Shown here in pieces: positions 1 to 64,000 of a DNA stretch of 64,000 nucleotides. A program made the position numbers and the translations under genes. Under the pieces are notes generated by a model. It searched no databases and had not been told where the DNA came from. It was given only the letters and a program-made list of their open reading frames with translations. The stretch's first letter is position 1, and each line of letters starts with the position of its first letter. The DNA lies in the NCBI RefSeq assembly GCF_032118995.1, contig NC_092663.1, forward strand, positions 3,658,001 through 3,722,000. The letters are read 5' to 3'. The stretch comes from Asterias amurensis. Lineage: Eukaryota; Echinodermata; Asteroidea; Forcipulatida; Asteriidae.

Positions 1-3000
1 TTTTTTACTTGGTAAACGAATATAATTACCTTCAGCACATCCCAAGACAGTTAACTCAATAGTTGCTTCGCTGACACCTGAGACATCAATGAACTTGATC
101 TGGAGTTCCTTTATACCTTCTAGTGATGGTTCGTTCATGGGAAATACCTTGACTTCTGATTGAATACCCTCAATAGTCAAGGTAAACTGTGAACAGGAGA
201 ATGGGAGTATCTGCTTTACTTCAAGATTCATAATCAATGAGCACATTGTTAAAAAATAAAAATGAAAAAAATAAATAAAAGTGGATTAGTTAAAAACTGT
301 TCTCACTCACCTCCGTGATTGTATTTTTGATCACCACTTGCTTGAAATCTTTCTCGTCTACTCTCTTTGCAAGTAATGTGAAAGTGAATTTGACTGACTG
401 TGGTGGCTTTGATCCTGTCTTTGGTGTGGTCATTCTTTCTGCTTGTCCAGAAGTAACACTTGATGTGATTTTCTTCAAAGTGATCAGAACTCCACGAACA
501 TTGACATTGCTATTGAACTTTCGCTCTAAAACAGCACTGTTGCCAACAGACTGCTCAATTGGCAACTCGGAAAATGTGAGAAAGCCTGACTCATCTGTGA
601 AAAGATTTCCATTTGTCTGGTCCTTTGTCTCTACACCGCTTTCGCTATCCATATTTTGAAGACAGTACCCTGAACAGACAGAAATGGGTTTTATTAACAC
701 TGAAAGTTTTTTTTTTATCAGATCTAAGGTTATTGCTATAGTCATTTTTATTTCTCAGAATATAAAACTGTATGTCTTTACCCTCTGTGGTTGAAACCAG
801 AGATGTTGTTGAGGTTGTTGTTCGTTCTGTGGTTGTCTGAGTTGGTGTTGTAACTGCCACAGTGCTAGTTGATTCTTCGGTTGTCGTTGTTGGTGTTGTC
901 ACAGAGACTGCTGTAGTTGTTACCTGGGTTGTGGTGAATTCTGGGACAAAACAAAAAGAGGGGATTGGAATCAGTTTGATATACAAACAAAAGGACTAGG
1001 TCTTTAGACTTTTTATTTTTAAGGGTTGCCTATTTGTATCGTGAATTTGGAAAAAACAAATCATTTATCACGTACAACTAACAGGAATACTGTATTCCTG
1101 CTACTACGACTTACCTTCTGCACAGCCCAATACATGTAGTTCCAAAGTTGCAGACGAAACACCAGTGACCTCTAGGACAGTCACACGGAATGCCACAACC
1201 CCTTTAATGACTTCATTTCCAGTTTTTAAGAACTTCTGCAAGGGTTGATCACTGACTGGTGTGAATGTGATCACCTGTGAGGAGAGAATTATAAAGTGAA
1301 CCTCAGAAATTACCCTTGATGCAACTTCTTCAGATATCTTCACATGTTTTATAATACTTGACTCTGAAAATAAGAGTGTTAGATTATTTGTTATATTCAC
1401 CTTTGGTTCTTGGTTGTCTTCCAGCAACAGGGGCTTAAAGTCATCGTCTGTCTCCTTCTTGGTGAAGAATTTGACAGTCACAGACACAAGTTCCTCAGTT
1501 CCTGACGGAGATGGTGTCGAGGAAGATGATGATGGAACAAGCCTAATGCTGATTGCTCTGATAGAGGCTGATCTTGTTAAAGTGCCATCAACACTGGGCG
1601 GGTAGTTGTCTCCCACAACTAAAGGCAAGGTGTCGAACTTGATGTAAGTTGTTCCATTTTCTACTTGTAAAGTAATTAGATCAGAGGTAGGTGTAAAACC
1701 TTTCTGAAGGCCTTCTTCACCATCCATATTCTCCAAACAGTAACCTGCAAGGTAAATAAATCAGTAATCGTATGAAAGTCATGTATGTTTGTGCAAAAAG
1801 CTGTAAGAATGAAGTTTTGGTTGACTATAAGTTATTCTTAATTACCTTGAGTTGTTGATAGCTGATGACTTGTAGTGCTGCTGGTCTTGGTTGTTGTAGC
1901 GGTCGTTGGTGCTTTAGGTTTTATGAAAAGTGCATAACAATTTAGAACATCAGGGATAAATATTATTCATTTTGGTTTTTACCCATATACACCATTGAGT
2001 GTTTATTACTGTATACTTGGTACTTACCTCAGTACTGTGAAAAAAATCACATACATATTACTCGGGTGGGAATATTCAGTGGCCAGAGGCAGTTCATTAC
2101 GTTAATAAATTCTCAATAACAAAATCAAGTAGCAAAATTTGAACTCTGTCTGAGTTGAACAAACTGACCTGACTTTATAGTAGTTAAAAGATATTTTGTT
2201 AGTCTGTAGCAATGAAAGGATTCATTATGCATAACAAAAAACATTGCAAGTGTGAAGAGACAAATGGATTCGCTTACGAGGAGGACGGCCCTTGATGGTA
2301 GTAGTCGATAGCAAAGTGTCTCCTGTTGGCAAACCTAAAGGATTAATCAAAATATTTTTTAATGTTCAGAACACAACAGAATGAATCCATCCAAGATGCT
2401 CATACATTTTTCCTGGTATTATAGTAAACACATGCACTTGTTATCAAGACTCTTCTCTTAATAAGTACAATTATTTTACCTTTAGTTGTAGGGGATTTGG
2501 TTGTCACATATTCTGTTGTTGAAAACTCTGTAAAAGCAAAAGTTATTGTTCAATAATTAGTTGTTTGTAGAATATTACTATAGTAAAGGGTTAACGTGAA
2601 TGTTGTAAAGAAATAGGTAATGTTTTAAAACCCTGTTTCAATGGAGAATAAGAAGAAATCACAAACCAACAAACCTAGTGGATAACAGGATAAGATGTGT
2701 CAAAAATTACTTTGAGAAAAGTATTTCCATATGTGGTAATGTGCAATTTGTACCAAAACTTGTCTTTGTAATTGTCCAACAAAATTTAATGCTAAAACAC
2801 TTTGGGGGGGGGGGGGGGTTCTTTACTTTGTAAACGAATGTGATTACCTTCAGCACATCCCAAGACAGTTAACTCAATAGTTGCTCCGCTGACACCTGAG
2901 ACATCAATGAACCTGATCTGGAGTTCCTTTATACCTTCTAGTGATGGTTCGTTCATGGGAAATACCTTCATTTCTGATTGAATACCCTCAATAGACAAGG

Positions 3001-57000: not shown

Positions 57001-60000
57001 GGGAGAGTCAAGAGTGATGGACTTTAAGTTGTCTTGGTACAATGTTGCTCTGAGTTTCTCACCTTCCAGCACATCAACAAACTGTCCATTATCTTCAGAT
57101 TTGGCTGAGAGAATGAATTCCAGGGTAATGACATCCTCACCATTCCCTTGTAGTTTAAAACCACGCACTTCAACTTTAGATTGGTACTGAACAATCACCC
57201 ATGGATTGTCATATTCCTCACCAGCATCTGACGACAACTGGAAGGTCCACGGATTTTCAGAGTTGATAAGTGTTGATTGATTTGCTAGTGTTTGCTGTGG
57301 TGCGAATGAACGCTGTTCAAGATTATCCAGCTCACTCAAGGGATCCATGCAGTAACCTGTAATTTGATAACGTCAAAGGTTTTTTTTAAAAAGATGATCA
57401 GCAATATAATCATTACATCCTAATGATTGTGACAATGATAACAAATGTGAAAGAGAATTCGGCCATTACCTGCAGTAGTCGAGGTTGATGTCTGGGTTGT
57501 AGTTGTTACCACTGCAAATAACAAAATATAGATTGATATCAAGTTGTGCAAAAAGATAATTTTTTGCAATTTGCTTATATTTTCTTTTGCTTTTGAAGAT
57601 GAGAGTTCACATGTCATCCTGTCACTGATTTTGAAGAGGGAATTGCTCATGCAAAGAACATTAAACACAAAGATAAGTGTCAGAGTTCATACTCAAGTAA
57701 ATTTATTAAAACAAAAAGATAAACACCACATGCATTTTATATGGCAGGGGTTGGAAGACAATGATATTTAGTGTACCTTTAGTAGTTGTGACAACCGGTG
57801 TAGTAGTTGAGATTTCTGTTTATAATCAAGAAGAATTCACCATTAATAAAAAAACAATTTATAGTGTTGTCAATGTAATTTATTGTGTGTACATATTTTC
57901 GAAAAGCGACAAGGAAAATATATGTCTAATATATGTATACATATTTTTTTTAATTCACTTTTAAATTGTTTATTTTTTAATAGTATTGAATTTGAATGTT
58001 TGAAGCACACTAGGAAAACACTACATTTACTTCTTATTTTTTTTGATGAAATAGATAAAAATGAGATTGAATTGAATTGGCTCACCCTCTTCGCAGCCAA
58101 GAACATCAAAGCGCAAACTACCAAATCCGGCATCTTCTTGATCTACAGACTCAAGTTGCAAGCTAAGAGCCAGCAAACCAGATAAAGGAGAAGGTAGTGC
58201 GACGGTTTCGACTCTCTGGTTTGTCAGATCTGCAATTAGTTTTTCATCTTCCAGCTCTACAAACAGTCCATCAACTTCGTACTTAGCCGACACAACAAAT
58301 TGCAATTCCTTGACAACATCACCACTTCCTTGCAGCTTAAATCCGTGCACTTCCACCTTGGACTTGAACTCAACAGTCACCGTAGGTTTGTTCTCTGCAT
58401 CAACATATGGCAGTAGTTCGAATATCCAGGGATTGTCAGCATTAATACCGGTTGATTGATTTTGCTGTGGTGATATAAAACGTCTTTCTTCTAGATCCAG
58501 CAGGCCATTTAATGGTTCCATACATTCTCCTGAACAAATCACATTAAACATAATGTTGAAAAGATGGTTATAAATTGAAACAAAAGCAGCGGTGCGAATA
58601 AGTAAAAAAAGATCGGAATCGACAACAAAAGAAATAAACCTTTAGCTGAGAATTCATAGATGATTTGTAGTATTTACCTGCTGTAGTAGAGGTTGACGTT
58701 TGGGTCGTAGTAGTAATAACTGCAAAACAAATTAAACATGGATTCTTATATCAATAGTTTAGTTGTATATTGGTACTAAATGCTGGCTGCATATTTTGTT
58801 TTTATTGTGCGAGTATTCTTTAAATTTGTGAGTATGAGTTTCATTCCCCTCACTTGCATAATAGGTTTTTTTCACAAAGATGGACAGAAAAGCTTTTGCT
58901 GTTATCTGTTTAGAAGTGGAGAATAAATGCATAAGTGTTGTTGCTGTTGGTGATGATGTTGTTGTTGTATTTTTTATTTTTTACATTCATGCAATACAAA
59001 TATTGAGATATTCAGCAATAATTAAAGGGTTAATACCTTTAGTCGTTGTGACAACCGGTGTAGTAGTGGGTATTTCTGTTTAGGATGACAGAAAAATCAT
59101 CGTCAATCACAATCATCAGTTAATCTAAACTTACAATTTACAAGTTTAGGAATTACACTAAGGATTTCGACCTACCTTCTTTGCATCCTAGCACATCGAG
59201 TCGCAAACTGCCTTTTCCAGCTTTTAAGTCATCAATTGATTGAACTTGTAATCGAACTGCAACTACTCGTTCTAATGGAGTGTCCAGATTGACGGACTCT
59301 AGTCCATCTCCGGACAAGGTTGCTGTGATTTTCTGATCTTGTGGCACCTCAACAAAGTCTCCATTATCTTCAAATTTGGCCAGGACGATGAATTTTAATT
59401 CCTTGACTAGCTCACCACTGCCTTGTAGCTTAAATCCGCGCACTTCAACTTTAGAAGTGAAATAAACAGTCAACTGAGGGGTGGTAACTGCTGACAGCTC
59501 AAAGGTCCACGGATATTCAGCGTTGATATTAGTTGATTGATTTGAAATCTGCTGCGGTGTGAATGAACGCTCCGCTTCAAGATCTTGCTCGCCACTCATG
59601 GGTTCCATACAGTAACCTGGAGTGGGTTTATATGTAAAATAAAATCATTTTAAATTACAAGTCCGAACCCGCAGCGCTTGATAAAAAGCAAGGATACAAT
59701 TTATATCTGCAGTACACATGCAGAAGAAAATTCATGATAACAACGGACATTACCTGCTGTGGTGGAGGTTGGCATTTCAGTTGTAGTAGTAACCACTGGG
59801 GAAAAATCAAAGTACAATGTTTGAAATCAACTTCAAAGCAACATGAAAAGATATGATCAAAGCACATGCCATATAGGCTTACGGCAAACAGATAAGTTTG
59901 TATTAGTCTTGTATACAATTTTTACTCTTAATTTGATTTTACCGGTTGTGGGTGTTGTCGGTCTACTTGATAGTCGAGTTGTTGTGATGACAGGATTGAA

Positions 60001-63000
60001 GCCTGAAACAAGTGGCGCTGCAAACCAAAAACAAAAAACAAGAAAGTTGAAGAAGTTGCACTTCATTGGTTTTGCCATCACTTGTTATTGAACCCTTAGA
60101 ACAAAAACTCCTGCAAGTGTTTTTGCTCTGATAATAGATAGGTGACAATATTTTCAAGTTGATGAAATAAAATAATTTCAGTCAGACAGCATTAAGTTGT
60201 TTAATGATTGATTTACCTTCTGTTGTCGTTGTCGCAAGAGTAGTAGTTGACAGTTCTGTTTTTAAGAAATGAGAAAGATAAAGACCATTTATTTCAACGA
60301 ATCTCCTCTTTGACCTATACTCTCACACTGGAACTCCTCATATCCAAGTTTCTCACACTCTCACTGAATGTTACGTACCTTCTTCACAACCAAGGATAGC
60401 AGCACGTAAACTGAACTGAAGTTTGCTGTCAGTGGATTGACTTTCATCCATTCGAGAGAGGGAAACTACTTCTAAGCGCAATCCTATTAACCCTTTCAGC
60501 GGCTTTATCAATGTTACATCTGAAGCTTGCTCATTCAGCCTCATATTCTGCACCTGCAACACCAATAACAAGAATGAGTATAGAATGGCCATTCATACCT
60601 GATCATTTGAGTGCCGCTCAACTTTGACATATGGCAATAATTTGTTAATACTGTCAATTGAATGTGTACTTATTGTGGGTAGGTTAATTTGAATAGGGAG
60701 AGTCTATGCTGAGAAAAGCTTCACTCACCAATGCTTTACCAGAGGCTCCCTGTACTATAACAAACGTTTCACCCAGTCTGCGTTTAGCTAACAAGATGAA
60801 TTCAATGTTGTCATTGTTTGTACTGCCCTGAAGCCTTACTCCAGTAACTGTGACTTCTGTCTTGAAATCTATGGTTACACTGGGGTTTTTGACAGTTTCT
60901 CGATCTTTCAAAGATGGCTGGTTATCAAGGGAGAACGTCCAAGGTTGCTGTGCGTTGACACTAGTTGACTGATCGTTGGCAATAGCCGGTTGTACTGATC
61001 GCTTGGCTTCCAGTCCCTGCGTTCCGTCAAGCTGCTCCATACAGTAACCTATTACGAAACCGCAACCAGAAGATTAATTTCAAAATAATTCTTCGAGAAT
61101 GAAAGGTTCAGCCAGTAATTTTTTGAAACCTTGACGAAAAAAATGAAATAAAGTACACACCTGCAGTTGTAGAAGTTGGAGACTGAGACGTGGTGGTTAC
61201 AACTGCAATTGTAATAAACAATAAAAGTTTCTGTTATAATCAACTGAATTGCAAAAGATAATGAGAAACAATTTTGCCACGCACGCTGGATAGTGTATAT
61301 CAACTGCAAATGACAGAGAACATGTAACTCGTAGAGACAGCGAGCGAGCGCAAGGCTTTCAGAACTCATGGGAGAGTCAACAGTAAATGAAAACATCTTA
61401 TCTCAATTTAAATCAAGATATTGATGCAGATTTCATTTCCAGACTAGTGTTGTATTTAGAGAACAACATAATCAATAAAACTAAAAGACAATTTGGGCGA
61501 GCGATGGACAAAAAGTGATTAACTACCGTAGTAAACTGACAGTTATTGCAATAAGGAGAAAAAACCTTGACTAAGATTTCCTTGCCCTAGCCAGCATATT
61601 TTGCTTTACCTTTAGTCGTTGTGGTTACTGGAGTAGTAGATGAAATCTCTGTTTGGAATAAAAAATTAAAAAAAGTCATTATTAATTTTTCTTTAAAAAA
61701 AAAAGAAGACTCTTGTAATAGTTTTTGCATTTGGCAGTAATGGATGTAACTTTCACTCACCCTTCTCGCAGCCGAGGACCTCAATTCGCAAACTACCAGT
61801 TCCGCCATTCTCCTTTTTGATAACTTGTAATTTAACTGCAACTACTCCAGGCAAGGGAGAGTCAAGAGTGATGGACTTTAAGTTGTCTTGGTACAATGTT
61901 GCTCTGAGTTTCTCACCTTCCAGCACATCAACAAACTGTCCATTATCTTCAGATTTGGCTGAGAGAATGAATTCCAGGGTAATGACATCCTCACCATTCC
62001 CTTGTAGTTTAAAACCACGCACTTCAACTTTAGATTGGTACTGAACAATCACCCATGGATTGTCATATTCCTCACCAGCATCTGACGACAACTGGAAGGT
62101 CCACGGATTTTCAGAGTTGATAAGTGTTGATTGATTTGCTAGTGTTTGCTGTGGTGCGAATGAACGCTGTTCAAGATTATCCAGCTCACTCAAGGGATCC
62201 ATGCAGTAACCTGTAATTTGATAACGTCAAAGGTTTTTTTTAAAAAGATGATCAGCAATATAATCATTACATCCTAATGATTGTGACAATGATAACAAAT
62301 GTGAAAGAGAATTCGGCCATTACCTGCAGTAGTCGAGGTTGATGTCTGGGTTGTAGTTGTTACCACTGCAAATAACAAAATATAGATTGATATCAAGTTG
62401 TGCAAAAAGATAATTTTTTGCAATTTGCTTATATTTTCTTTTGCTTTTGAAGATGAGAGTTCACATGTCATCCTGTCACTGATTTTGAAGAGGGAATTGC
62501 TCATGCAAAGAACATTAAACACAAAGATAAGTGTCAGAGTTCATACTCAAGTAAATTTATTAAAACAAAAAGATAAACACCACATGCATTTTATATGGCA
62601 GGGGTTGGAAGACAATGATATTTAGTGTACCTTTAGTAGTTGTGACAACCGGTGTAGTAGTTGAGATTTCTGTTTATAATCAAGAAGAATTCACCATTAA
62701 TAAAAAAACAATTTATAGTGTTGTCAATGTAATTTATTGTGTGTACATATTTTCGAAAAGCGACAAGGAAAATATATGTCTAATATATGTATACATATTT
62801 TTTTTAATTCACTTTTAAATTGTTTATTTTTTAATAGTATTGAATTTGAATGTTTGAAGCACACTAGGAAAACACTACATTTACTTCTTATTTTTTTTGA
62901 TGAAATAGATAAAAATGAGATTGAATTGAATTGGCTCACCCTCTTCGCAGCCAAGAACATCAAAGCGCAAACTACCAAATCCGGCATCTTCTTGATCTAC

Positions 63001-64000
63001 AGACTCAAGTTGCAAGCTAAGAGCCAGCAAACCAGATAAAGGAGAAGGTAGTGCGACGGTTTCGACTCTCTGGTTTGTCAGATCTGCAATTAGTTTTTCA
63101 TCTTCCAGCTCTACAAACAGTCCATCAACTTCGTACTTAGCCGACACAACAAATTGCAATTCCTTGACAACATCACCACTTCCTTGCAGCTTAAATCCGT
63201 GCACTTCCACCTTGGACTTGAACTCAACAGTCACCGTAGGTTTGTTCTCTGCATCAACATATGGCAGTAGTTCGAATATCCAGGGATTGTCAGCATTAAT
63301 ACCGGTTGATTGATTTTGCTGTGGTGATATAAAACGTCTTTCTTCTAGATCCAGCAGGCCATTTAATGGTTCCATACATTCTCCTGAACAATTCACATTA
63401 AACATAATGTTGAAAAGATAGTTATAAATTGAAACAAAAGCAGCGGTGCGAATAAGTAAAAAAAGATCGGAATCGACAACAAAAGAAATAAACCTTTAGC
63501 TGAGAATTCATAGATGATTTGTAGTATTTACCTGCTGTAGTAGAGGTTGACGTTTGGGTCGTAGTAGTAATAACTGCAAAACAAATTAAACATGGATTCT
63601 TATATCAATAGTTTAGTTGTATATTGGTACTAAATGCTGGCTGCATATTTTGTTTTTATTGTGCGAGTATTCTTTAAATTTGTGAGTATGAGTTTCATTC
63701 CCCTCACTTGCATAATAGGTTTTTTTCACAAAGATGGACAGAAAAGCTTTTGCTGTTATCTGTTTGGAAGTGGAGAATAAATGCGTAAGTGTTGTTGCTG
63801 TTGGTGATGATGTTGTTGTTGTATTTTTTATTTTTTACATTCATGCAATACAAATATTGAGATATTCAGCAATAATTAAAGGGTTAATACCTTTAGTCGT
63901 TGTGACAACCGGTGTAGTAGTGGGTATTTCTGTTTAGGATGACAGAAAAATCATCGTCAATCACAATCATCAGTTAATCTAAACTTACAATAAACAAGTT
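1..64000 (-). CDS. Giant modular discoidin/mucin-like/VWC-TIL secreted protein gene (partial, both ends open)
   Basis: Exons with good GT/AG sites can be chained on the minus strand from 63,929 to 30, and every junction I checked preserves phase. Domains and linkers begin and end in phase 1; introns inside discoidin and VWC modules are phase 0. Seen: two-Cys discoidin-like domains of about 147-172 residues starting G-Y-C and ending L-G-C-(A/E/K)-E-G, Thr-rich linkers, and a Cys-rich VWC/TIL centre. Known: discoidin domains bind sugars or lipids and close with a disulfide between terminal Cys; VWC/TIL modules occur in VWF, gel mucins, insect hemocytin and sea star Sfp1. Inferred: a secreted adhesive, matrix or mucus protein, disulfide-rich and O-glycosylated. 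No VWD, C8 or cystine-knot domain and no signal peptide is seen, but both ends lie outside. Two adjoining genes are possible but less likely, since phase is unbroken through the centre. Confidence 0.8.
30..669 (-). CDS. B-type discoidin-like domain, copy B-1 (two exons)
   Basis: Exon 1 311-669 (359 bp, phase 1 to 0) and exon 2 30-186 (157 bp, phase 0 to 1), 172 codons. Landmarks are G-Y-C-L-Q-N-M-D-S-E-S-G-V, N-V-R-G-V-L-I-T-L, F-T-L-L-A-K-R-V-D-E and, after the intron, I-E-L-T-V-L-G-C-A-E-G. The strand pattern aligns with the right-array domains (V-E-V-R-G-F-K-L and F-I-L-S-A-K). The gene continues past the left edge; bases 1-29 are intron. Confidence 0.88.
782..940 (-). CDS. Thr-rich linker exon T1-1 (representative of thirteen)
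   Basis: 159 bp, phase 1-1, 53 codons, over half of them Thr or Ser, beginning E-F-T-T-T-Q-V-T-T-T and ending S-L-V-S-T-T-E-G. It joins A to B in each unit. Predicted to be O-glycosylated, rigid and extended, as in mucins. Confidence 0.88.
1115..1744 (-). CDS. A-type discoidin-like domain, copy A-1 (two exons)
   Basis: Exon 1 1401-1744 (344 bp, phase 1 to 0) and exon 2 1115-1274 (160 bp, phase 0 to 1), 168 codons together. First Cys in G-Y-C-L-E-N-M, last in H-V-L-G-C-A-E-G; a Ser-rich loop P-S-S-S-S-S-T-P-S-P-S-G sits mid-domain. The 126 bp intron 1275-1400 has no stop and keeps the frame, so exon 1, intron and exon 2 can also be read as one; I prefer splicing because sister domains align without the extra 42 residues. 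Confidence 0.88.
1846..2527 (-). CDS. Three-exon long linker between B-2 and A-1
   Basis: Exons 2480-2527 (F-S-T-T-E-Y-V-T-T-K-S-P-T-T-K), 2278-2334 (G-L-P-T-G-D-T-L-L-S-T-T-T-I-K-G-R-P) and 1846-1911 (P-T-T-A-T-T-T-K-T-S-S-T-T-S-H-Q-L). Chosen because acceptors, donors and phases fit exactly. The introns (for example 1912-2277) contain no other gene. Confidence 0.83.
2848..3487 (-). CDS. B-type domain, copy B-2 (two exons)
   Basis: Exons 3129-3487 and 2848-3004, G-S-T-T-P-Q form. Poly-G of 15 at 2804-2818 just past the donor, here without the interrupting A. Confidence 0.9.
3932..4561 (-). CDS. A-type domain, copy A-2 (two exons)
   Basis: Exons 4218-4561 and 3932-4091, V-K-L-F form. T1-2 is 3599-3757. 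Confidence 0.9.
4663..4737 (-). CDS. Short linker exon T2 (representative of eight)
   Basis: 75 bp, phase 1-1, begins E-V-S-T-T-T-Q-T-T-T-S-S and ends P-Q-L-S-T-T-P-G. Other copies: 9559-9633, 14451-14525, 16523-16597, 18572-18646, 23464-23538, 25536-25610, 27609-27683. Its end resembles the last exon of the long linker, which it replaces in short units. Confidence 0.85.
4919..5558 (-). CDS. B-type domain, copy B-3 (two exons)
   Basis: Exons 5200-5558 and 4919-5075. T-N-G-N-L-F, A-E-R-M and G-S-K-P-P-Q match B-1, so units 1 and 3 are recent sisters. Short linker 4663-4737 follows. Confidence 0.9.
6004..6633 (-). CDS. A-type domain, copy A-3 (two exons)
   Basis: Exons 6290-6633 and 6004-6163. 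Q-N-G-T replaces E-N-G-T, keeping the sequon. T1-3 is 5671-5829. Confidence 0.9.
6735..7416 (-). CDS. Three-exon long linker between B-4 and A-3
   Basis: Exons 7369-7416, 7167-7223 and 6735-6800, phase 1-1 each. Confidence 0.83.
7744..8383 (-). CDS. B-type domain, copy B-4 (two exons)
   Basis: Exons 8025-8383 and 7744-7900. The longest poly-G tract of the set (16 G at 7693-7708, then A and five G) follows its donor; long linker exons 7369-7416, 7167-7223 and 6735-6800 come next. Confidence 0.9.
8828..9457 (-). CDS. A-type domain, copy A-4 (two exons)
   Basis: Exons 9114-9457 and 8828-8987; private V-K-L-F-S-K-K. T1-4 is 8495-8653. Confidence 0.9.
9815..10455 (-). CDS. B-type domain, copy B-5 (two exons)
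   Basis: Exons 10097-10455 and 9815-9971. Short linker 9559-9633 follows. Confidence 0.9.
10900..11529 (-). CDS. A-type domain, copy A-5 (two exons)
   Basis: Exons 11186-11529 and 10900-11059, V-K-F-F like A-1 and A-9 but with the other form of the internal intron. T1-5 is 10567-10725, with P-T-R-T-T-T for P-T-Q-T-T-T. Confidence 0.9.
11631..12312 (-). CDS. Three-exon long linker between B-6 and A-5
   Basis: Exons 12265-12312, 12063-12119 and 11631-11696, same sequence as the other array long linkers as far as I can see. The 366 bp intron between the last two contains paired splice-like sites near 11813-11819. Confidence 0.83.
12636..13275 (-). CDS. B-type domain, copy B-6 (two exons)
   Basis: Exons 12917-13275 and 12636-12792, G-S-T-T-P-Q form shared with B-2. 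Poly-G tract 12589-12600 follows the donor; long linker exons 12265-12312, 12063-12119 and 11631-11696 come next. Confidence 0.9.
13720..14349 (-). CDS. A-type domain, copy A-6 (two exons)
   Basis: Exons 14006-14349 and 13720-13879, V-K-L-F form as in A-2. T1-6 is 13387-13545. Confidence 0.9.
14707..15347 (-). CDS. B-type domain, copy B-7 (two exons)
   Basis: Exons 14989-15347 and 14707-14863. Near-identical to B-5. Short linker 14451-14525 follows. Confidence 0.9.
15792..16421 (-). CDS. A-type domain, copy A-7 (two exons)
   Basis: Exons 16078-16421 and 15792-15951, with K-F-D-A-L-P, P-F-P-T-G and K-P-G-N-E-V. T1-7 is 15459-15617. Confidence 0.9.
16779..17418 (-). CDS. B-type domain, copy B-8 (two exons)
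   Basis: Exons 17060-17418 and 16779-16935, with A-N-E-M-T-T-P and S-V-K-I-T-F. Short linker 16523-16597 follows. Confidence 0.9.
17841..18470 (-). CDS. A-type domain, copy A-8 (two exons)
   Basis: Exons 18127-18470 and 17841-18000, K-P-G-N-E-V in place of K-T-G-N-E-V. Its downstream intron has lost 23 bases including a small palindrome, so the donor reads on into a shortened intron. T1-8 is 17530-17688. Confidence 0.9.
18828..19467 (-). CDS. B-type domain, copy B-9 (two exons)
   Basis: Exons 19109-19467 and 18828-18984. Has A-E-R-M, S-V-K-L-T-F and S-E-A-T-I-E-L. The intron before exon 1 is the alpha type. Short linker 18572-18646 follows. Confidence 0.9.
19913..20542 (-). CDS. A-type domain, copy A-9 (two exons)
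   Basis: Exons 20199-20542 and 19913-20072, V-K-F-F form. T1-9 at 19580-19738 has one T-to-A substitution (T-T-A-A-V-S). Confidence 0.9.
20644..21325 (-). CDS. Three-exon long linker between B-10 and A-9
   Basis: Exons 21278-21325 (48 bp), 21076-21132 (57 bp, G-L-P-T-G-D-T-L-L-S-T-T-T-I-K) and 20644-20709 (66 bp, T-S-S-T-T-S-H-Q-L-S-T-T-Q-G). All phase 1-1. A poly-G tract (12 G at 21602-21613) lies just past the B-10 donor. Confidence 0.83.
21649..22287 (-). CDS. B-type domain, copy B-10 (two exons)
   Basis: Exons 21929-22287 and 21649-21805. Private residues F-N-S-N-I-I-V-R-G and G-S-T-S-Q-Q-S make it the most distinct B copy within the array interior. Long linker follows at 21278-21325, 21076-21132 and 20644-20709. 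Confidence 0.9.
22733..23362 (-). CDS. A-type domain, copy A-10 (two exons)
   Basis: Exons 23019-23362 and 22733-22892. Starts G-F-C in place of G-Y-C owing to one base near 23,359. T1-10 is 22399-22557, ending S-T-T-Q-G rather than S-T-T-E-G. Confidence 0.9.
23720..24359 (-). CDS. B-type domain, copy B-11 (two exons)
   Basis: Exons 24001-24359 and 23720-23876, A-E-R-M form. The acceptor of exon 2 reads TTAACAG instead of TTCACAG, a weaker but usable site. Short linker 23464-23538 follows. Confidence 0.88.
24805..25434 (-). CDS. A-type domain, copy A-11 (two exons)
   Basis: Exons 25091-25434 and 24805-24964, with P-S-P-T-G and V-K-F-F. T1-11 at 24472-24630 is followed by the alpha-type intron (see B-11). 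Confidence 0.9.
25792..26433 (-). CDS. B-type domain, copy B-12 (two exons)
   Basis: Exons 26075-26433 and 25792-25948; carries A-E-R-M-T-T-P-K-T-G. Short linker exon 25536-25610 follows. Confidence 0.9.
26878..27507 (-). CDS. A-type domain, copy A-12 (two exons)
   Basis: Exons 27164-27507 and 26878-27037. Typical array A domain: G-Y-C-L-E-N-M-D-G-E-E-G, sequon E-N-G-T, a Ser-rich loop before P-S-P-T-G, then after the intron V-I-T-F-T-P-V-S-D-Q and L-E-L-H-V-L-G-C. This copy has L-E-V-E-N and K-F-D-A-L-P. T1-12 lies at 26545-26703. Confidence 0.9.
27865..28504 (-). CDS. B-type domain, copy B-13 (two exons)
   Basis: Exon 1 28146-28504 starts G-Y-C-L-Q-N-M-D-S-E-S; exon 2 27865-28021 starts F-T-L-S-I-E-G and ends V-L-G-C-A-E-G. 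Private changes are F-F-E-L-P-I-E and T-T-G-Q-A-E-G. A short linker exon follows at 27609-27683. Confidence 0.9.
28949..29583 (-). CDS. A-type domain, copy A-13 (two exons, diverged)
   Basis: Exon 1 29240-29583 starts G-Y-C-L-E-N-I-D; exon 2 28949-29108 ends V-L-G-C-A-E-G. Differences from the array include E-G-F-T for K-G-F-T, M-R-L-V, S-Y-S-T-P, L-K-F-F and V-L-S-A-T. The internal intron is 131 bp and does not keep the frame, unlike the 126 bp intron of other copies. T1-13 follows at 28616-28774. Confidence 0.87.
29685..30276 (-). CDS. Three-exon Thr-rich linker, diverged long type
   Basis: Exons 30229-30276 (F-S-T-T-E-H-V-T-T-K-S-P), 29954-30010 (G-L-P-T-E-G-T-F-L-V-S-T-T-I-K-D) and 29685-29750 (mostly Thr, then P-Q-L-S-T-T-P-G). 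Lengths 48, 57 and 66 equal those of the array long linkers, so the three-exon form predates the array. Confidence 0.82.
30121..30165. other. Short insertion with two ATAAGCCG motifs
   Basis: Within the 3-exon linker introns of this diverged unit, about 100 extra bases relative to the long units include ATATAAGCCGCCCGGCGCATAAGCCG. Such motifs occur in dispersed repeats of many animals; the source is unknown here. Confidence 0.5.
30573..31207 (-). CDS. B-type discoidin-like domain, diverged copy B-14 (two exons)
   Basis: Exon 1 30849-31207 (359 bp) starts G-F-C-L-E-K-V-D-S-E; exon 2 30573-30729 (157 bp) ends L-N-V-L-G-C-A-E-G. Exon lengths equal those of the array copies although the protein differs at many sites (for example V-I-G-N-T-I-R-E for V-I-K-N-T-I-T-E). 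The linker exons that follow are 30229-30276, 29954-30010 and 29685-29750. Confidence 0.87.
31307..31405 (-). CDS. Thr-rich linker T1-14
   Basis: 99 bp, phase 1-1, begins G-Y-T-T-T-A-K-T-T-T and ends S-Q-V-S-T-T-K-G. Shorter than the 159 bp T1 of the array, lacking a block of about 20 codons. Confidence 0.82.
31587..31640 (-). pseudogene. Relic of a discoidin C-terminal exon
   Basis: In the intron between A-14 and its linker, the minus strand reads A-M-T-E-M-H-E-I-G-C-A-E before a GTAAGC donor, matching the L-E-L-H-V-L-G-C-A-E end of A domains. There is no upstream remainder and no usable acceptor, since the A-14 donor is only about 100 bases away. Confidence 0.55.
31687..32963 (-). CDS. A-type discoidin-like domain, diverged copy A-14 (two exons)
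   Basis: Exon 1 32653-32963 (311 bp, phase 1 to 0) starts G-S-C-L-D-A-L-D-D-D; exon 2 31687-31846 (160 bp, phase 0 to 1) starts K-I-T-F-R-L-I and ends L-H-I-L-G-C-T-N-G. Exon 2 has the same length as in the array copies. It differs from them at most positions and is the most diverged A domain, so it stands outside the recent array. The 806 bp intron contains a SINE. Confidence 0.82.
32040..32236 (-). mobile_element. tRNA-derived SINE in the A-14 intron
   Basis: Minus-strand A box TGGTTGAGCGGTCTAG and B box GGTTCGAACCC (32,225 to 32,160), then AAGGGCAAGGCACTTAG and a body toward 32,040. Resembles the 37-38 kb SINEs in layout but with a different head. Confidence 0.75.
33043..33297 (+). mobile_element. 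Truncated copy of the palindromic MITE family (strand arbitrary)
   Basis: Matches the 39,017-39,414 element in reverse orientation, including the GAGACCTC/GAGGTCTC inner palindrome and the terminal CAATAGTGTCCACTGCCTTTAA. The opposite terminal part is missing. A CT then TA microsatellite follows at about 33,363-33,415. Confidence 0.75.
33441..33609 (-). CDS. VWC-like module 4, main exon, with Thr-rich tail
   Basis: 169 bp, phase 0 to 1. Reads E-G-E-T-L-V-Q-D-C-E-I-C-K-C-V-H and later M-G-C-R-M-N-P-I-C-E, followed directly by T-T-T-T-K-T-S-T-T-E-G. The module lacks the closing C-C-x-C of the others and passes straight into a linker, so it may be a shortened VWC. Confidence 0.78.
33610..34427 (-). 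other. Long intron (818 bp)
   Basis: No exon found. Bases from about 33,830 to 34,255 look less AT-rich and end, on the plus strand, in a GGGTTAAATGAATTAAA-like tail that could be the end of an old retroposon; I cannot assign a family. Confidence 0.5.
34428..34678 (-). CDS. TIL-like module 2 plus start of VWC-like module 4
   Basis: 251 bp, phase 1 to 0. Reads Y-C-R-D-I-C-H-V-P-C-N-K, F-N-T-T-S-C, T-T-L-C-E-C-R-D-G-F, S-M-C-V-E-V-D-S-C-R-P-D-C. The C-x-C-x2-G-F and following C-V are TIL-like, but spacing is looser than in module 1. Several N-x-T/S sites are present. The last residues D-C-I-L-E-N-H-T-F-Y begin a VWC-like module. Confidence 0.75.
34801..34834. repeat. Tight 15-base-pair hairpin with four-base loop
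   Basis: Arms 34801-34815 and 34820-34834 around GAAA. One position pairs only as G-U, and only on the minus strand, the transcribed sense of the gene. Confidence 0.8.
34957..35145 (-). mobile_element. tRNA-derived SINE, second family
   Basis: Minus-strand A box TTGGCATAGTG and B box GGTTCGAATC (35,098 to 35,080 region) followed by a body unlike the SINEs at 37-38 kb (CTGGGGTTCACCTCCCACAT). The 3' part ends in a short direct duplication of CTAAAACTGAAACTTC at about 34,958 and 34,982. Confidence 0.75.
35211..35261 (-). CDS. Thr-rich linker exon, centre
   Basis: 51 bp, phase 1-1, reading T-S-T-E-A-T-T-E-A-P-S-T-T-V-K-V. Its last base starts the Tyr/Cys codon completed by the next exon. Confidence 0.78.
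35534..35593 (-). CDS. Thr-rich linker exon, centre
   Basis: 60 bp, phase 1-1, reading I-I-T-Q-S-T-T-P-A-L-T-E-Q-S-T-T-P-L-Y. It separates VWC-3 from the second TIL-like module. The 396 bp intron on its right (35594-35989) holds nothing I recognise. Confidence 0.8.
35990..37054 (-). CDS. VWC-like module 3 (three exons)
   Basis: Exons 37011-37054 (44 bp), 36375-36479 (105 bp) and 35990-36035 (46 bp), phases 1-0, 0-0, 0-1. Reads D-R-C-K-Y-K-D then I-G-E-V-W-K-P-S-K-C-E-E-C-E-C and M-C-R-S-K-V-C, ending V-E-G-E-C-C-A-H-C. This is the clearest VWC module here: G-x-x-W followed by C-x2-C-x-C, then C-R-x3-C, then G-E-C-C-x2-C. Confidence 0.88.
36480..37010 (-). other. Intron of 531 bp with no recognised content
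   Basis: AT-rich, between the first and second exons of VWC-3. I see no exon, RNA gene or known repeat. The next intron to the left (36036-36374, 339 bp) has a repeated phrase CATCCAGAATTATAA at about 36,168 and 36,223 but nothing else. Confidence 0.6.
37150..37437 (-). mobile_element. Older tRNA-derived SINE of a related family
   Basis: The B box is degenerate (GGTTCAGATC) and the A box hard to read, but the block CACTTGTGTCTTTGAGCAAG is shared with the SINE at 37812-38134. The tail contains GCGCATTGACA. More diverged, hence older. It lies in the intron 37055-37633. Confidence 0.7.
37634..38354 (-). CDS. VWC-like module 2 (two exons)
   Basis: Exons 38241-38354 (114 bp, phase 0-0) and 37634-37691 (58 bp, phase 0 to 1). 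Reads I-W-T-Q-E-N-C-T-M-C-K-W-K-D, then D-C-Q-E-Y-C and D-A-C-G-E-E, ending D-M-I-C-C-H-C-V-P-K. The E-N-C-x2-C-x-W core and C-C-x-C ending are VWC-like. The intron between the exons holds a SINE. Confidence 0.8.
37812..38134 (-). mobile_element. tRNA-derived SINE, complete head and tail
   Basis: On the minus strand the head (38,131 to 38,045) has an A box TGGCCAAGCGGTTAAGAGC and a B box GGTTCGAATCC, a pairable acceptor stem (GTGTCG with CGTGACAC) and a long variable arm. The loop resembles tRNA-Leu(CAA). Then come CACTTGTGTCCTTAAGCAAG and, at the far end, GCGCTATATAAGACTTCG with an AT-rich tail near 37,812. Type: SINE with tRNA-Leu-like head. It sits in sense orientation inside an intron. 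Confidence 0.85.
38446..38510. repeat. Inverted repeat, about 25-base arms
   Basis: Arms 38446-38470 (TTTTTACTCCCATTA, then an ATAT run) and 38486-38510 (its complement), with a few mismatches and a 15-base loop. Probably one half of a compound hairpin with 38521-38580. Confidence 0.8.
38521..38580. repeat. Inverted repeat, 27-base arms
   Basis: Arms 38521-38547 and 38554-38580 are complementary at 24 of 27 positions around a six-base centre. It directly follows another inverted repeat at 38446-38510. Both lie in the intron 38355-38652, which has no other content I recognise. Confidence 0.85.
38653..38822 (-). CDS. TIL-like module 1 plus start of VWC-like module 2
   Basis: 170 bp, phase 1 to 0. 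Starts E-C-Q-Y-G-M-V-Y-S-D-C-A-C-N-R-T-C and continues through D-C-S-E-D-C-E-P-G-C-S-C to G-T-E-C-V-E-K-C-S-C. The spacing C-x8-C, R-T-C, P-G-C-x-C and the F-W-D-G-T-E-C loop are those of trypsin-inhibitor-like (TIL) modules of VWF, mucins and hemocytin. The last residues C-L-Y-M-E-H-L open the next VWC-like module. Confidence 0.85.
39017..39414 (-). mobile_element. Palindromic MITE-like element, full copy (398 bp; strand arbitrary)
   Basis: Ends are inverted repeats (39017-39050 and 39381-39414) that begin TTAAAGRCA and include CACTATTGGTAATTAT. TTAA at both outer ends may be a target duplication or part of the repeat. The interior has 17-base perfect inverted arms at 39196-39212 and 39224-39240. 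No coding capacity. A partial relative lies at 33043-33297 in the opposite orientation. Non-autonomous DNA transposon; superfamily not assigned. Confidence 0.8.
39505..39670 (-). CDS. VWC-like module 1, main exon
   Basis: 166 bp, phase 0 to 1. Reads Y-G-D-E-V-V-I-N-D-C-Y-I-S-I-C, then an N-C-N-I-E-N-C segment and the typical G-E-C-C-S-C near the end. With the preceding C-Y-Y-N-G-T-F-Y-E it makes a compact module of VWC type (Cys-pair C-C-x-C at the end). VWC modules are found in secreted matrix proteins and mucins, where they mediate protein contacts or multimerisation. Confidence 0.8.
39671..40138 (-). other. Intron of 468 bp with no recognised content
   Basis: Between the chimeric exon and VWC-1. 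AT-rich on the left; I see no exon, RNA gene or repeat family that I recognise. Confidence 0.6.
40139..40197 (-). CDS. Chimeric exon: Thr-rich linker fused to the start of VWC-like module 1
   Basis: A 59 bp exon, phase 1 to 0, reading V-V-T-T-T-T-E-M-P-T-S then C-Y-Y-N-G-T-F-Y-E. The first eleven residues equal the linker exon 45214-45255 of the array, which there continues S-T-T-A-G. The second half supplies the first Cys and aromatic strand of a VWC module completed by the next exon. Confidence 0.85.
40391..40440 (-). pseudogene. Decayed copy of the 75/60 bp linker exon
   Basis: The donor end (A-C-A-A-C-C-G before GTAAAA) matches the exon at 45403-45477, but the 5' part of the exon and both acceptors are missing, with the flanking intron sequence joined on near 40,430. 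None of the remaining AG dinucleotides gives a phase-1 exon, so it is probably skipped. Confidence 0.7.
40455..40931 (-). repeat. Tandem duplication of about 237 bp around a linker exon
   Basis: The block starting TTTGCCATCACTTG at 40,455 recurs at 40,692 with a few differences. Each copy holds one 39 bp linker exon and its flanks. It is found only in the edge unit. Confidence 0.9.
40600..40877 (-). CDS. Duplicated Thr-rich linker exons at the left edge of the right array
   Basis: Two 39 bp phase 1-1 exons, 40839-40877 (E-L-S-T-T-T-L-A-T-A-T-T-E-G) and 40600-40638 (E-L-S-T-T-N-L-A-T-T-T-T-E-G). Other units have one such exon in this place. Both keep acceptor, donor and frame, so both can be spliced in. 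Confidence 0.75.
41001..41670 (-). CDS. EQL discoidin-like domain, unit R1 (two exons)
   Basis: Exon 1 is 41351-41670 (320 bp, phase 1 to 0) and exon 2 is 41001-41175 (175 bp, phase 0 to 1), separated by a 175 bp intron. The domain starts G-Y-C-M-E-Q-L and ends A-A-I-L-G-C-E-E-G. N-D-Q-S-T keeps the sequon seen in its three sister domains. The intron sits after G-K-A-L, aligning with the uninterrupted G-A-T-L in DPL and with the split in the left-array domains. Linker 41783-41824 (V-V-T-T-T-S-Q-S-P) precedes it. This copy has L-L-T-K-R-R where the others have L-L-A-K-R-R. Confidence 0.88.
41825..42232 (-). other. Intron of about 408 bp, unit R1
   Basis: Between linker exons 42233-42271 and 41783-41824. 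AT-rich; I find no exon, mobile element or RNA gene in it. It recurs in every right-array unit with single-base differences. Other introns above 300 bp in the unit (for example 44185-44496, with a GTTGTT-type run near 44,397) are likewise without recognisable content. Confidence 0.7.
42233..44535 (-). CDS. Paired Thr-rich linker exons within unit R1
   Basis: Between every two discoidin-like domains lie a 39 bp exon (E-I-[S/P]-T-T-T-P-V-[V/T]-T-T-T-K-G) and a 42 bp exon (V-[V/I]-T-T-T-T-Q-T-S-T-S-T-T-A-G). In R1 they are 44497-44535 + 44143-44184, 43243-43281 + 42937-42978 and 42233-42271 + 41783-41824 (the last lies just left of this span). All are phase 1-1 and a multiple of three long. The pairs resemble one another, so the two-exon linker was probably duplicated together with its domain. 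Confidence 0.8.
42384..42833 (-). CDS. DPL discoidin-like domain, unit R1 (single exon)
   Basis: Exon of 450 bp, phase 1-1, 149 codons, starting G-Y-C-M-D-P-L and ending I-E-V-L-G-C-E-K-G. Landmarks are A-N-Q-S-T, P-W-T-F-Q-L, V-E-V-R-G-F-K-L-Q-G, F-I-L-S-A-K and L-P-G-V-V-A-V-K-L-Q-V. This copy differs from all other units by K-L-G-A-T-L (others K-L-R-A-T-L) and K-K-Q-N-G-G (others K-K-E-N-G-G). Linker exons are 42937-42978 upstream and 42233-42271 downstream. Confidence 0.9.
43551..43994 (-). CDS. EPL discoidin-like domain, unit R1 (single exon)
   Basis: Exon of 444 bp, phase 1-1, 147 codons. It begins G-E-C-M-E-P-L rather than G-Y-C and ends F-D-V-L-G-C-E-E-G. Landmarks are Q-N-Q-S-T, P-W-I-F-E-L, K-V-E-V-H-G-F-K-L-Q-G and L-S-G-L-L-A-L-S-L-Q-L. 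The downstream poly-A/T-rich intron reads through in frame for a while, but the GAGG/GTGAGT donor after C-E-E-G marks the exon end. Neighbouring linker exons are 44143-44184 upstream and 43243-43281 downstream. Confidence 0.88.
44636..45076 (-). CDS. EPM discoidin-like domain, unit R1 (single exon)
   Basis: Exon of 441 bp in phase 1-1, acceptor CTCCAG before G-Y-C-M-E-P-M and donor after C-K-E-G. Conserved landmarks are N-Q-S-T near residue 24, a P-W-T-F-E-L strand, V-E-V-R-G-F-K-L-Q-G, a K-F-I-V-L-A-K strand and the closing S-L-R-L-D-V-L-G-C. The two Cys at the ends fit the disulfide that closes discoidin folds. No intron interrupts it, unlike EQL and the left-array domains. Linker exons before it lie at 45214-45255 (V-V-T-T-T-T-E-M-P) and 45403-45477, and after it at 44497-44535 (E-I-P-T-T-T-P). 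Confidence 0.88.
45214..45715 (-). CDS. Inter-unit Thr-rich linker exons between EQL (R2) and EPM (R1)
   Basis: Three phase 1-1 exons: 45677-45715 (39 bp, L-S-T-T-T-L-A-T-T-T-T-E-G), 45403-45477 (75 bp, containing N-P-V-I-T-T-T-R-L-S-S-R-P) and 45214-45255 (42 bp, V-V-T-T-T-T-E-M-P-T-S-T-T-A-G). The middle exon has two in-frame acceptors 15 bases apart (starts 45,477 or 45,462); the first follows a long T-rich tract ending GCAG and is my choice. Thr density predicts O-glycosylated, extended spacers. The set recurs in each right-array unit. Confidence 0.75.
45839..46508 (-). CDS. EQL discoidin-like domain, unit R2 (two exons)
   Basis: Exons 46189-46508 and 45839-46013. Followed by the R1 linker exon 45677-45715, which here begins G-L-S-T-T-T because the first split codon reads GGA; in the other units it begins E-L-S-T-T-T. 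Confidence 0.86.
47220..47669 (-). CDS. DPL discoidin-like domain, unit R2
   Basis: Carries the majority residues K-L-R-A-T-L and K-K-E-N-G-G, so R1 is the odd unit. The linker 5' of the array junction here reads with S-S-T-T-P in place of S-T-T-T-P (near 47,098), shared with R3-R5. Confidence 0.88.
48388..48831 (-). CDS. EPL discoidin-like domain, unit R2
   Basis: Same exon as in R1, shifted 4,837 bp. The only coding difference I see is I-N-A-N-N-P-W in place of I-N-A-D-N-P-W, a change private to this unit. Confidence 0.87.
49473..49913 (-). CDS. EPM discoidin-like domain, unit R2
   Basis: Protein identical to the R1 copy as far as I can read, same 441 bp length and phases. Upstream linkers lie about 4,837 bp to the right of those in R1. 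In the downstream linker of this unit one base change gives T-S-G in place of T-T-G on the opposite-strand reading, so the E-I-P linker carries a single substitution. Confidence 0.87.
50676..51345 (-). CDS. EQL discoidin-like domain, unit R3 (two exons)
   Basis: Exons 51026-51345 and 50676-50850, with A-K-R-R as in R2, R4 and R5. The following linker exon (about 50514-50552) begins E-L-S-T-T-T. Confidence 0.86.
52058..52507 (-). CDS. DPL discoidin-like domain, unit R3
   Basis: 450 bp exon with majority residues. The intron to its right (near 52,566) has a short insertion absent from R1 and R2 but present in R4 and R5. Confidence 0.88.
53237..53680 (-). CDS. EPL discoidin-like domain, unit R3
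   Basis: 444 bp exon with the majority I-N-A-D-N-P-W. One extra T in the intron just past the donor changes where the intronic read-through ends; the exon itself is not affected. Confidence 0.87.
54322..54762 (-). CDS. EPM discoidin-like domain, unit R3
   Basis: 441 bp exon, unchanged protein relative to R1 and R2. The acceptor context (CTCCAG) and donor (GTAGGT) are preserved. Confidence 0.87.
55525..56194 (-). CDS. EQL discoidin-like domain, unit R4 (two exons)
   Basis: Exons 55875-56194 and 55525-55699. The optional 75/60 bp linker exon in the neighbouring R3 segment (near 55,087-55,161) has one base change, giving P-P-V-S-G in place of P-L-V-S-G if the outer acceptor is used. Confidence 0.86.
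56907..57356 (-). CDS. DPL discoidin-like domain, unit R4
   Basis: 450 bp exon identical in protein to R2, R3 and R5. Confidence 0.88.
58086..58529 (-). CDS. EPL discoidin-like domain, unit R4
   Basis: 444 bp exon, same protein as R3 and R5; donor after C-E-E-G in the CACCC context. Confidence 0.87.
59176..59616 (-). CDS. EPM discoidin-like domain, unit R4
   Basis: 441 bp exon, protein unchanged. The intron on its left shares with R5 a replacement in the T-rich stretch near 58,771, which dates R4 and R5 as the most recent duplicates. Confidence 0.87.
60379..61048 (-). CDS. EQL discoidin-like domain, unit R5 (two exons)
   Basis: Exons 60729-61048 and 60379-60553; protein as in R2-R4. Confidence 0.86.
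61761..62210 (-). CDS. DPL discoidin-like domain, unit R5
   Basis: 450 bp exon with the majority residues, shifted 19,377 bp from R1. Confidence 0.87.
62940..63383 (-). CDS. EPL discoidin-like domain, unit R5
   Basis: 444 bp exon, the 5'-most full discoidin domain in the window. Linker exons 63532-63573 and 63891-63929 precede it; the EPM exon that should follow to the right would begin past base 64,000. Confidence 0.86.

What the first reader, a model, noticed from the sequence alone, without database searches (positions are those of the whole stretch)
1..64000. A single giant modular gene of at least about 9,900 codons
By hand I could connect roughly 200 minus-strand exons, all in frame, without start or stop. 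The architecture (about 47 discoidin-like domains plus VWC/TIL core and mucin-like linkers) is larger in discoidin count than the hemocytin or Sfp1-type proteins I know. If it is one transcript, it is an extreme adhesive or gel-forming protein.
Basis: partly seen in the sequence, partly recalled or inferred. Interest (0 to 1): 0.85.

Follow-up and report, generated by a model that had tools for sequence, protein, structure and literature searches.

The report
Giant repeat-built discoidin–threonine protein gene
This stretch of animal DNA looks like the middle of one enormous gene for a secreted, sugar-coated, sticky or gel-forming protein, built by copying the same pair or foursome of modules over and over, recently and without breaking the reading frame.

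Summary
The modules lie in two arrays of tandem DNA repeats, introns included: 13 left units of two modules (95.0–99.9% identical) and about 4.8 right units of four (98–99.8%), around a non-repeated VWC/TIL core. Left-array coding sequence is constrained (pN/pS 0.52 modules, 0.14 linkers), and none of 23 exon types varies in length while 10 of 24 intron types do. Right modules are F5/8 type C by Pfam (60.6 bits per unit, cutoff 28.2); left modules have no F5/8C match and join by homology. Best reading: a megadalton secreted adhesive or gel-forming glycoprotein whose phase-1 units let unequal crossing-over change its length. One transcript, organism (perhaps a sea star, recalled) and function are not shown; no VWD was found in the pieces scanned. 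Boldest reading: the repetitive sea-star footprint fragments Sfp12 are pieces of such a gene.

The parts
1..64000 (-). Internal part of one predicted gene: 173 exons, 9,928 codons, open at both ends
   Evidence: Curated model, 0 stops, 173/173 GT-AG, phases match
40692..64000 (-). Right (5' side) array: about 4.8 tandem units of 4,837-4,854 bp, each four discoidin-like modules (order D2, D3, D4, D1) separated by Thr-rich phase 1-1 exons of 39-75 nt; 19 modules in the window
   Evidence: blastn 98.1-99.8% to a reference unit; unit spacing; model
58086..58529 (-). Example right-array module R_D2, single exon 444 nt
   Evidence: Pfam PF00754 alone E 0.0072, below cutoff
59176..59616 (-). Example right-array module R_D1, single exon 441 nt; folded and compared with PDB
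61761..62210 (-). Example right-array module R_D3, single exon 450 nt
   Evidence: scanned only inside the whole unit
60379..61048 (-). Example right-array module R_D4, two exons (61048-60729, 60553-60379) with a phase-0 intron
   Evidence: Pfam PF00754 alone E 0.0014, below cutoff
40455..40934 (-). 239-bp tandem duplication (96% matches) that doubles one Thr-linker exon (40839-40877 and 40600-40638)
   Evidence: exons
33441..40197 (-). Non-repeated core, 12 exons K1-K12: VWC and TIL matches, further VWC-like and TIL-like stretches by eye, two Thr-rich exons
   Evidence: Pfam VWC 1.1e-9, 38.9 bits (cutoff 27.6), TIL 4.4e-5, 24.0 bits (cutoff 24.5); TIL 26.4 bits when K1-K3 are scanned alone; exons by eye and checked
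31687..32963 (-). Core discoidin-like module K13+K14 (32963-32653, 31846-31687)
30573..31207 (-). Diverged left-type module C_D2, about 87% DNA identity to left-array copies
30..29583 (-). Left (3' side) array: 13 units, each two discoidin-like modules (D1, D2, two exons each) and Thr-rich exons; 418-aa units (about 2.07 kb) and 450-aa units (about 2.82 kb)
2848..4561 (-). Example left unit: D1 (4561-4218, 4091-3932), Thr linker (3757-3599), D2 (3487-3129, 3004-2848)
1846..2527 (-). Triple Thr-linker exons (2527-2480, 2334-2278, 1911-1846) that make a long unit; a single 75-nt exon takes their place in short units

Best explanation
The window is the interior of one giant secreted-protein gene. 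The protein alternates divergent F5/8 type C (discoidin) modules, each probably closed by one N-to-C disulfide, with short Thr-rich segments likely to carry O-glycans, around a Cys-rich VWC/TIL core. It probably works as a very long, flexible, acidic, heavily glycosylated chain: many weak binding modules give multivalent grip on sugars, matrix or a surface, and the core and the unseen ends link chains into a gel, glue or clot. Repeat boundaries lie in phase-1 introns, so unequal crossing-over or gene conversion can add or remove whole units without a frameshift; this built the arrays and probably still varies their length. Shown: the exon chain, module homology, repeat structure, and constraint in the left array. 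Inferred: single transcript, secretion, disulfides, glycosylation, binding, adhesive or gel role, present-day length variation.
For: Exon chain and absence of stops against plus-strand and shuffled controls; frame continuity without a phase constraint. F5/8C: Pfam 60.6 bits, E 2.2e-16 for one right unit; 17 of 17 PDB sequences matched by the right-module profile up to E 5 are factor VIII, factor V or lactadherin, though the best E is only 0.017; Foldseek best matches are factor VIII C2, E 8.8e-4. Left-right homology: hhalign 96.8%, E 3e-10; all 28 left and core modules outrank all 560 shuffled decoys, at E 1.9e-5 to 0.023. Exactly two Cys, at position 2 and in a C-terminal LGC, in 47 of 47 modules (29 distinct sequences). 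VWC and TIL. Linkers 49% Thr, 13% Ser over 1,765 aa; net charge -465. Repeat identity; 0 of 23 exon types but 10 of 24 intron types vary in length, and left pN/pS 0.52 and 0.14.
Against: No transcript evidence; no start, stop or terminal domain identified. The automatic finder does not recover most of the Cys-rich core exons. Right-array copies are too alike for a selection test (pN/pS 1.18 modules, 0.67 linkers, on very few changes), and one left exon type, L_D1a, has pN/pS 0.83. Single right modules are below the Pfam cutoff (3 of 3 tested); left modules have no F5/8C hit. The AlphaFold model is weak (mean pLDDT 60.6), with unrelated beta folds close behind in Foldseek; the left exon-1 model is unusable (pLDDT 51.6, pTM 0.38). 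One signal-peptide-like in-frame ATG stretch lies at 36116, reading into core exon K8 (1 candidate on the minus strand of the core, 0 on the plus strand). No VWD or C8. Assembly error cannot be ruled out from sequence alone.
Confidence: 0.6

Rival explanations
1. Two adjacent genes of the same family: an upstream right-array gene that ends in the core and a downstream left-array gene that starts in the core.
For: The two arrays use different module types and ages; one signal-peptide-like in-frame ATG stretch at 36116 on the minus strand of the core and none on the plus strand; the core is where the automatic finder does worst: 12 of 14 or 14 of 21 junctions compatible, and exons K3-K8 and K11 not found in the stricter run.
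Against: A phase-consistent Cys-rich exon chain bridges the core and holds VWC and TIL domains; AATAAA is as common on the plus strand of the core (19 against 20), so it carries no signal; the 36116 start would open inside a VWC domain and overlaps an intron pyrimidine tract (my reading); module K13/K14 and the left-array relative C_D2 follow directly from the core in frame.
Confidence: 0.2
2. The copy number is partly an assembly artefact (mis-joined or duplicated repeats); the real gene has fewer units.
For: Right units are up to 99.8% identical, the kind of array that assemblers get wrong; no read data available.
Against: No two of the 13 left units are identical (95.0-99.9%); right units differ in substitutions and intron lengths; the left array holds two unit lengths in a mixed order.
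Confidence: 0.1
3. The protein is an immune or clotting protein of blood cells (hemocytin/hemolectin-like) or an egg or larval coat protein, rather than a surface adhesive or mucus.
For: F5/8C, TIL and VWC modules are shared by such proteins (recalled); nothing in the window fixes the tissue.
Against: No VWD or C8 found in the pieces scanned; Thr-rich linkers between the modules are more mucin-like (inference).
Confidence: 0.25

Closest known systems
Sea star footprint proteins Sfp1 and Sfp2 (Asterias rubens)
   Same: Large multi-domain secreted adhesives with glycan-binding lectin, TIL and VWF-type domains (PMC9382459, sections 2.1, 2.4, 3.3 read)
   Different: 3,853 and 3,716 aa with VWD and C8; here at least 9,928 codons, 47 discoidin-like modules, no VWD/C8 found in the pieces scanned
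Sfp12a/b/c (Asterias rubens, incomplete)
   Same: Repetitive, Thr-rich, predicted O-glycosylated, no annotated domain, 442/437/425 aa, in poorly assembled regions (PMC9382459); left units here are 418 or 450 aa, Thr-rich, and a 418-aa unit has no Pfam family at E 0.1
   Different: Sequences could not be compared; organism of the window unknown
Nectin (Paracentrotus lividus)
   Same: Tandem discoidin domains in an echinoderm adhesive
   Different: 984 aa, six FA58C domains (PMC10057474, passages read); here 47 more divergent modules with Thr-rich linkers
Hemocytin / hemolectin, SCO-spondin (recalled)
   Same: F5/8C with TIL and VWC-type Cys-rich modules
   Different: Few F5/8C domains and VWD assemblies (recalled); no such arrays that I know of
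Gel-forming mucins (recalled)
   Same: Thr/Ser-rich O-glycosylation segments with Cys-rich modules
   Different: Thr-rich sequence here lies in many small separate exons between folded modules, not in one long domain

Membership tests
F5/8 type C (discoidin) domain, right-array modules | Match to PF00754 above the curated cutoff | tested here: met
   One four-module unit 60.6 bits against 28.2, two stretches each passing E 0.1 alone; but single modules R_D1, R_D2, R_D4 score 16.1, 16.9, 19.2 bits, below cutoff
F5/8 type C (discoidin) domain, left-array modules | Match to PF00754 above the curated cutoff | tested here: not met
   L_D1: no family; L_D2: only DUF2204 (E 0.033) and YbbR (E 0.14), both below cutoff; an early, incomplete K13+K14 version: no family; 418-aa left unit: no family up to E 0.1. 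Only homology to right modules
F5/8 type C (discoidin) domain | Cys near each end joined as one disulfide (recalled family feature) | tested here: met
   47 of 47 modules have exactly two Cys, at position 2 and in a terminal LGC; the bond itself not tested
F5/8 type C (discoidin) domain | Discoidin jelly-roll fold | tested here: inconclusive
   Right module R_D1: beta-rich, best PDB matches factor VIII C2 at E 8.8e-4, TM 0.51, but pLDDT 60.6 and non-discoidin beta folds close behind. Left exon-1 model unusable
VWC domain | PF00093 above cutoff | tested here: met
   38.9 bits against 27.6, two stretches each passing E 0.1 alone, in the core
TIL domain | PF01826 above cutoff | tested here: inconclusive
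   26.4 bits against 24.5 when K1-K3 scanned alone; 24.0 in the whole core
Hemocytin / Sfp1 type | VWD and C8 domains with TIL | tested here: not met
   No VWD or C8 in Pfam scans of core exons K1-K12 and of one unit of each array; gene ends lie outside the window
Gel-forming mucin | Secreted, with Thr/Ser-rich O-glycosylated segments | not testable with these tools
   Linkers are 62% Thr+Ser; secretion and glycosylation not tested
Sfp12 | Sequence identity to OP067648-OP067650 | not testable with these tools
   Sequences not held; only text of PMC9382459 seen

The most novel reading that the evidence does not exclude
The window is a sea-star (or close relative) gene for a megadalton footprint glue component, of which the unplaced, repetitive, Thr-rich Sfp12a/b/c fragments (and perhaps the VWF-type Sfp13) are pieces. 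Its unit count changes by in-frame unequal crossing-over, so individuals carry glue or mucus chains of different length.
Probability: 0.15. Interest if true: 0.8.

Novelty: new variant of a known kind. Interest (0 to 1): 0.55.

Why it matters
It would be the largest discoidin array that I know of (recalled; paper searches were looked at mainly as listings, and the passages that I read show six domains in nectin). It shows in one locus how giant adhesive or mucus proteins can grow: phase-1 modules, copied with their introns, very alike and still in frame. Such loci are hard for short-read assemblies and transcriptomes, so proteins of this kind may be recorded only as fragments (inference).

Tried and rejected
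Own-genome search: no genome is held. The first gene-finder run with too low an exon penalty over-split exons (301 exons) and was replaced. Six of my first hand-typed core exon ends were wrong by a base or two and were corrected. Organism: a 225-bp repeat present twice in inverted orientation (33074-33297, 39017-39241) looks to me like a sea-star element (recall only); exact-pattern scans of the viral and prokaryote collections gave 0 matches, and word searches of papers gave 0. Protein search of viral contigs with a left-module exon returned two loci, 32% identity over 64 residues, with E relative to 35 candidates only; judged chance and not used. PDB profile search of left modules: 2 matches, neither F5/8C, E 0.43 and 0.92. 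NCBIfam on the 4 members of alignment A3: one weak unrelated match, E 0.15. PDB search of the Cys-rich core: one unrelated match at E 0.94. Left-array structure from exon 1 alone: unusable. Start and poly(A) scan of the core: no informative signal. tRNA scan: none.

Papers: PMC9382459: outline, sections 2.1, 2.4, 3.3 and found passages; PMC10057474: found passages; all others seen only as search listings (one search listed 20 of 59).

Full report
WHAT IS THERE. The window is eukaryotic in character (spliced; 34-39% GC per 2-kb block); no genome is held for it. It contains two tandem arrays of near-identical DNA around a non-repeated core of about 9 kb. In the right array (about 40.7-64 kb) units of 4,837-4,854 bp are 98.1-99.8% identical to a chosen reference unit; in the left array (about 1-29.7 kb) units of about 2.07 and 2.82 kb follow one another. 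The identity includes the introns. Over the part shared by all 13 left units, pairwise identity is 95.0-99.9%.

GENE MODEL. I wrote a simple gene finder, took its exon types, merged three module exons that it had split (R_D3, the first exon of R_D4, K13), placed the Cys-rich core exons by reading the three frames, and projected the types onto all copies. The result is 173 exons, all GT-AG, all phase-compatible, 9,928 codons, no stop, running off both window ends. Exons: 80 module exons, 81 Thr-rich linker exons, 12 core exons (counted from the tally). Linker exons are all phase 1-1; modules start and end in phase 1, with internal introns of phase 0; only two core exons are 0-0.

IS IT MORE THAN CHANCE. 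With the same settings the finder scores 2,989 on the minus strand, 317 on the plus strand and 70-81 on three shuffles. The codon table was trained on the curated exons, which favours the minus strand. Without the phase constraint 163 of 165 junctions are still compatible at one penalty and 170 of 186 at a looser one; in the core alone 12 of 14 and 14 of 21. Copies are not independent, so the weight rests on 44 exon types. Against the model: the automatic finder missed core exons K2-K8 and K11, and K3-K8 and K11 in the stricter run; those exons rest on splice signals read by eye and on the VWC and TIL matches.

SELECTION. None of the 23 exon types with three or more copies varies in length, while 10 of 24 intron types do; left-array pN/pS is 0.52 in modules and 0.14 in linkers; left introns differ by 3.4% against 2.3% at synonymous sites. 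One left exon type, L_D1a, is at 0.83, so constraint is uneven. The right array is too young for this test (1.18 in modules, 0.67 in linkers, on very few changes).

WHAT THE MODULES ARE. There are 47 modules: 19 right, 26 left, 2 core, 29 distinct protein sequences. All 47 have exactly two cysteines, at position 2 and in a C-terminal LGC. A right-array unit of four modules matches Pfam F5/8 type C with 60.6 bits, over the cutoff of 28.2; three single right modules score 16-19 bits, below it (the fourth was not scanned alone). The right-module profile finds 17 PDB sequences up to E 5, all of them factor VIII, factor V or lactadherin, though the best E is only 0.017. The AlphaFold model of one right module is of low confidence (pLDDT 60.6); its best Foldseek matches are factor VIII C2 domains at E 8.8e-4 and TM 0.51, but unrelated beta folds follow closely. 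Left modules have no F5/8C hit in Pfam (L_D2 has two weak unrelated ones) or in the PDB. They are homologous to right modules: hhalign 96.8% and E 3e-10; a right-module HMM ranks all 28 left and core modules above all 560 shuffled decoys, with E between 1.9e-5 and 0.023. Left modules and R_D4 both have a phase-0 intron at about the same place (within about four residues by my reading of the alignments). So discoidin identity is firm for the right array and indirect for the left. The second fold job, on the first exon of a left module, was unusable.

CORE. Pfam finds VWC (38.9 bits, cutoff 27.6) and TIL (24.0 to 26.4 bits, cutoff 24.5). By eye there are further VWC-like and TIL-like stretches. 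No VWD or C8 was found in K1-K12 or in one unit of each array. Core exon K1 begins with the same ten residues (VTTTTEMPTS) as a right-array linker exon before it turns into the VWC start, as if the core had been joined to a linker exon.

HOW IT PROBABLY WORKS. Shown: modules and Thr-rich linkers alternate; linkers are 49% Thr and 13% Ser over 1,765 residues; the chain is acidic (net -465). Inferred: secretion, O-glycosylation, many weak binding modules acting together, chain linking by Cys-rich parts. Because unit boundaries lie in phase-1 introns, unequal crossing-over or gene conversion can add or drop whole units in frame. The mixed order of short and long left units and the high identity within the right array fit repeated recent events. 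The mass is about 1.1 MDa before glycans, at 0.11 kDa per residue, for the part in the window.

ONE GENE OR TWO. I cannot decide this from DNA alone. Against a split: the phase-matched core chain with real domains. For a split: different array types, and one in-frame signal-peptide-like ATG at 36116 (1 candidate on the minus strand of the core, 0 on the plus), which would start inside a VWC domain and overlaps an intron pyrimidine tract. AATAAA words are equally common on both strands of the core (20 and 19).

COMPARISON WITH THE KNOWN. Sea star Sfp1 has 3,853 aa and Sfp2 3,716; the authors list incomplete Sfp12a/b/c of 442, 437 and 425 aa as variants of a repetitive Thr-rich sequence, predicted highly O-glycosylated, without annotated domains, in poorly assembled regions; Sfp13 has VWD and VWC (PMC9382459). 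Left units here encode 418 or 450 aa, are Thr-rich, and a 418-aa unit has no Pfam family at E 0.1. That is a resemblance in length and character only. Sea urchin nectin has six tandem discoidin domains in 984 aa (PMC10057474). My impression that the window is from a sea star rests on recall of a repeat and was not confirmed.

VERDICT. It is a new and extreme arrangement of known modules, not a new kind of system. The single transcript and the function remain to be shown.

Noticed in passing
33074-33297 and 39017-39241: A 225-bp repeat in opposite orientations, 88% identical, within core introns: probably a small transposable element. It resembles, by recall only, one common in sea stars.
   Followed up: partly
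38000-38130 and 37260-37420: Two intronic stretches that look by eye like tRNA-derived short interspersed elements (A-box and B-box-like words); ARAGORN calls no tRNA.
   Followed up: no
40265-40640: The last right-array copy is decayed: part of a linker exon (T6) and its acceptor are missing (62 bp absent by blastn), while the neighbouring linker exon was doubled by a 239-bp tandem duplication.
   Followed up: partly
40139-40197: Core exon K1 starts with the first ten residues of right-array linker exon T7 and then turns into a VWC start, as if the core was joined to a linker exon.
   Followed up: no
36001-38000: GC skew is -0.13 here, against positive values in most other 2-kb blocks; mostly intron.
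   Followed up: no
36116-35989: In-frame ATG with a hydrophobic stretch reading into core exon K8; a possible alternative start, more likely chance from a pyrimidine tract.
   Followed up: partly
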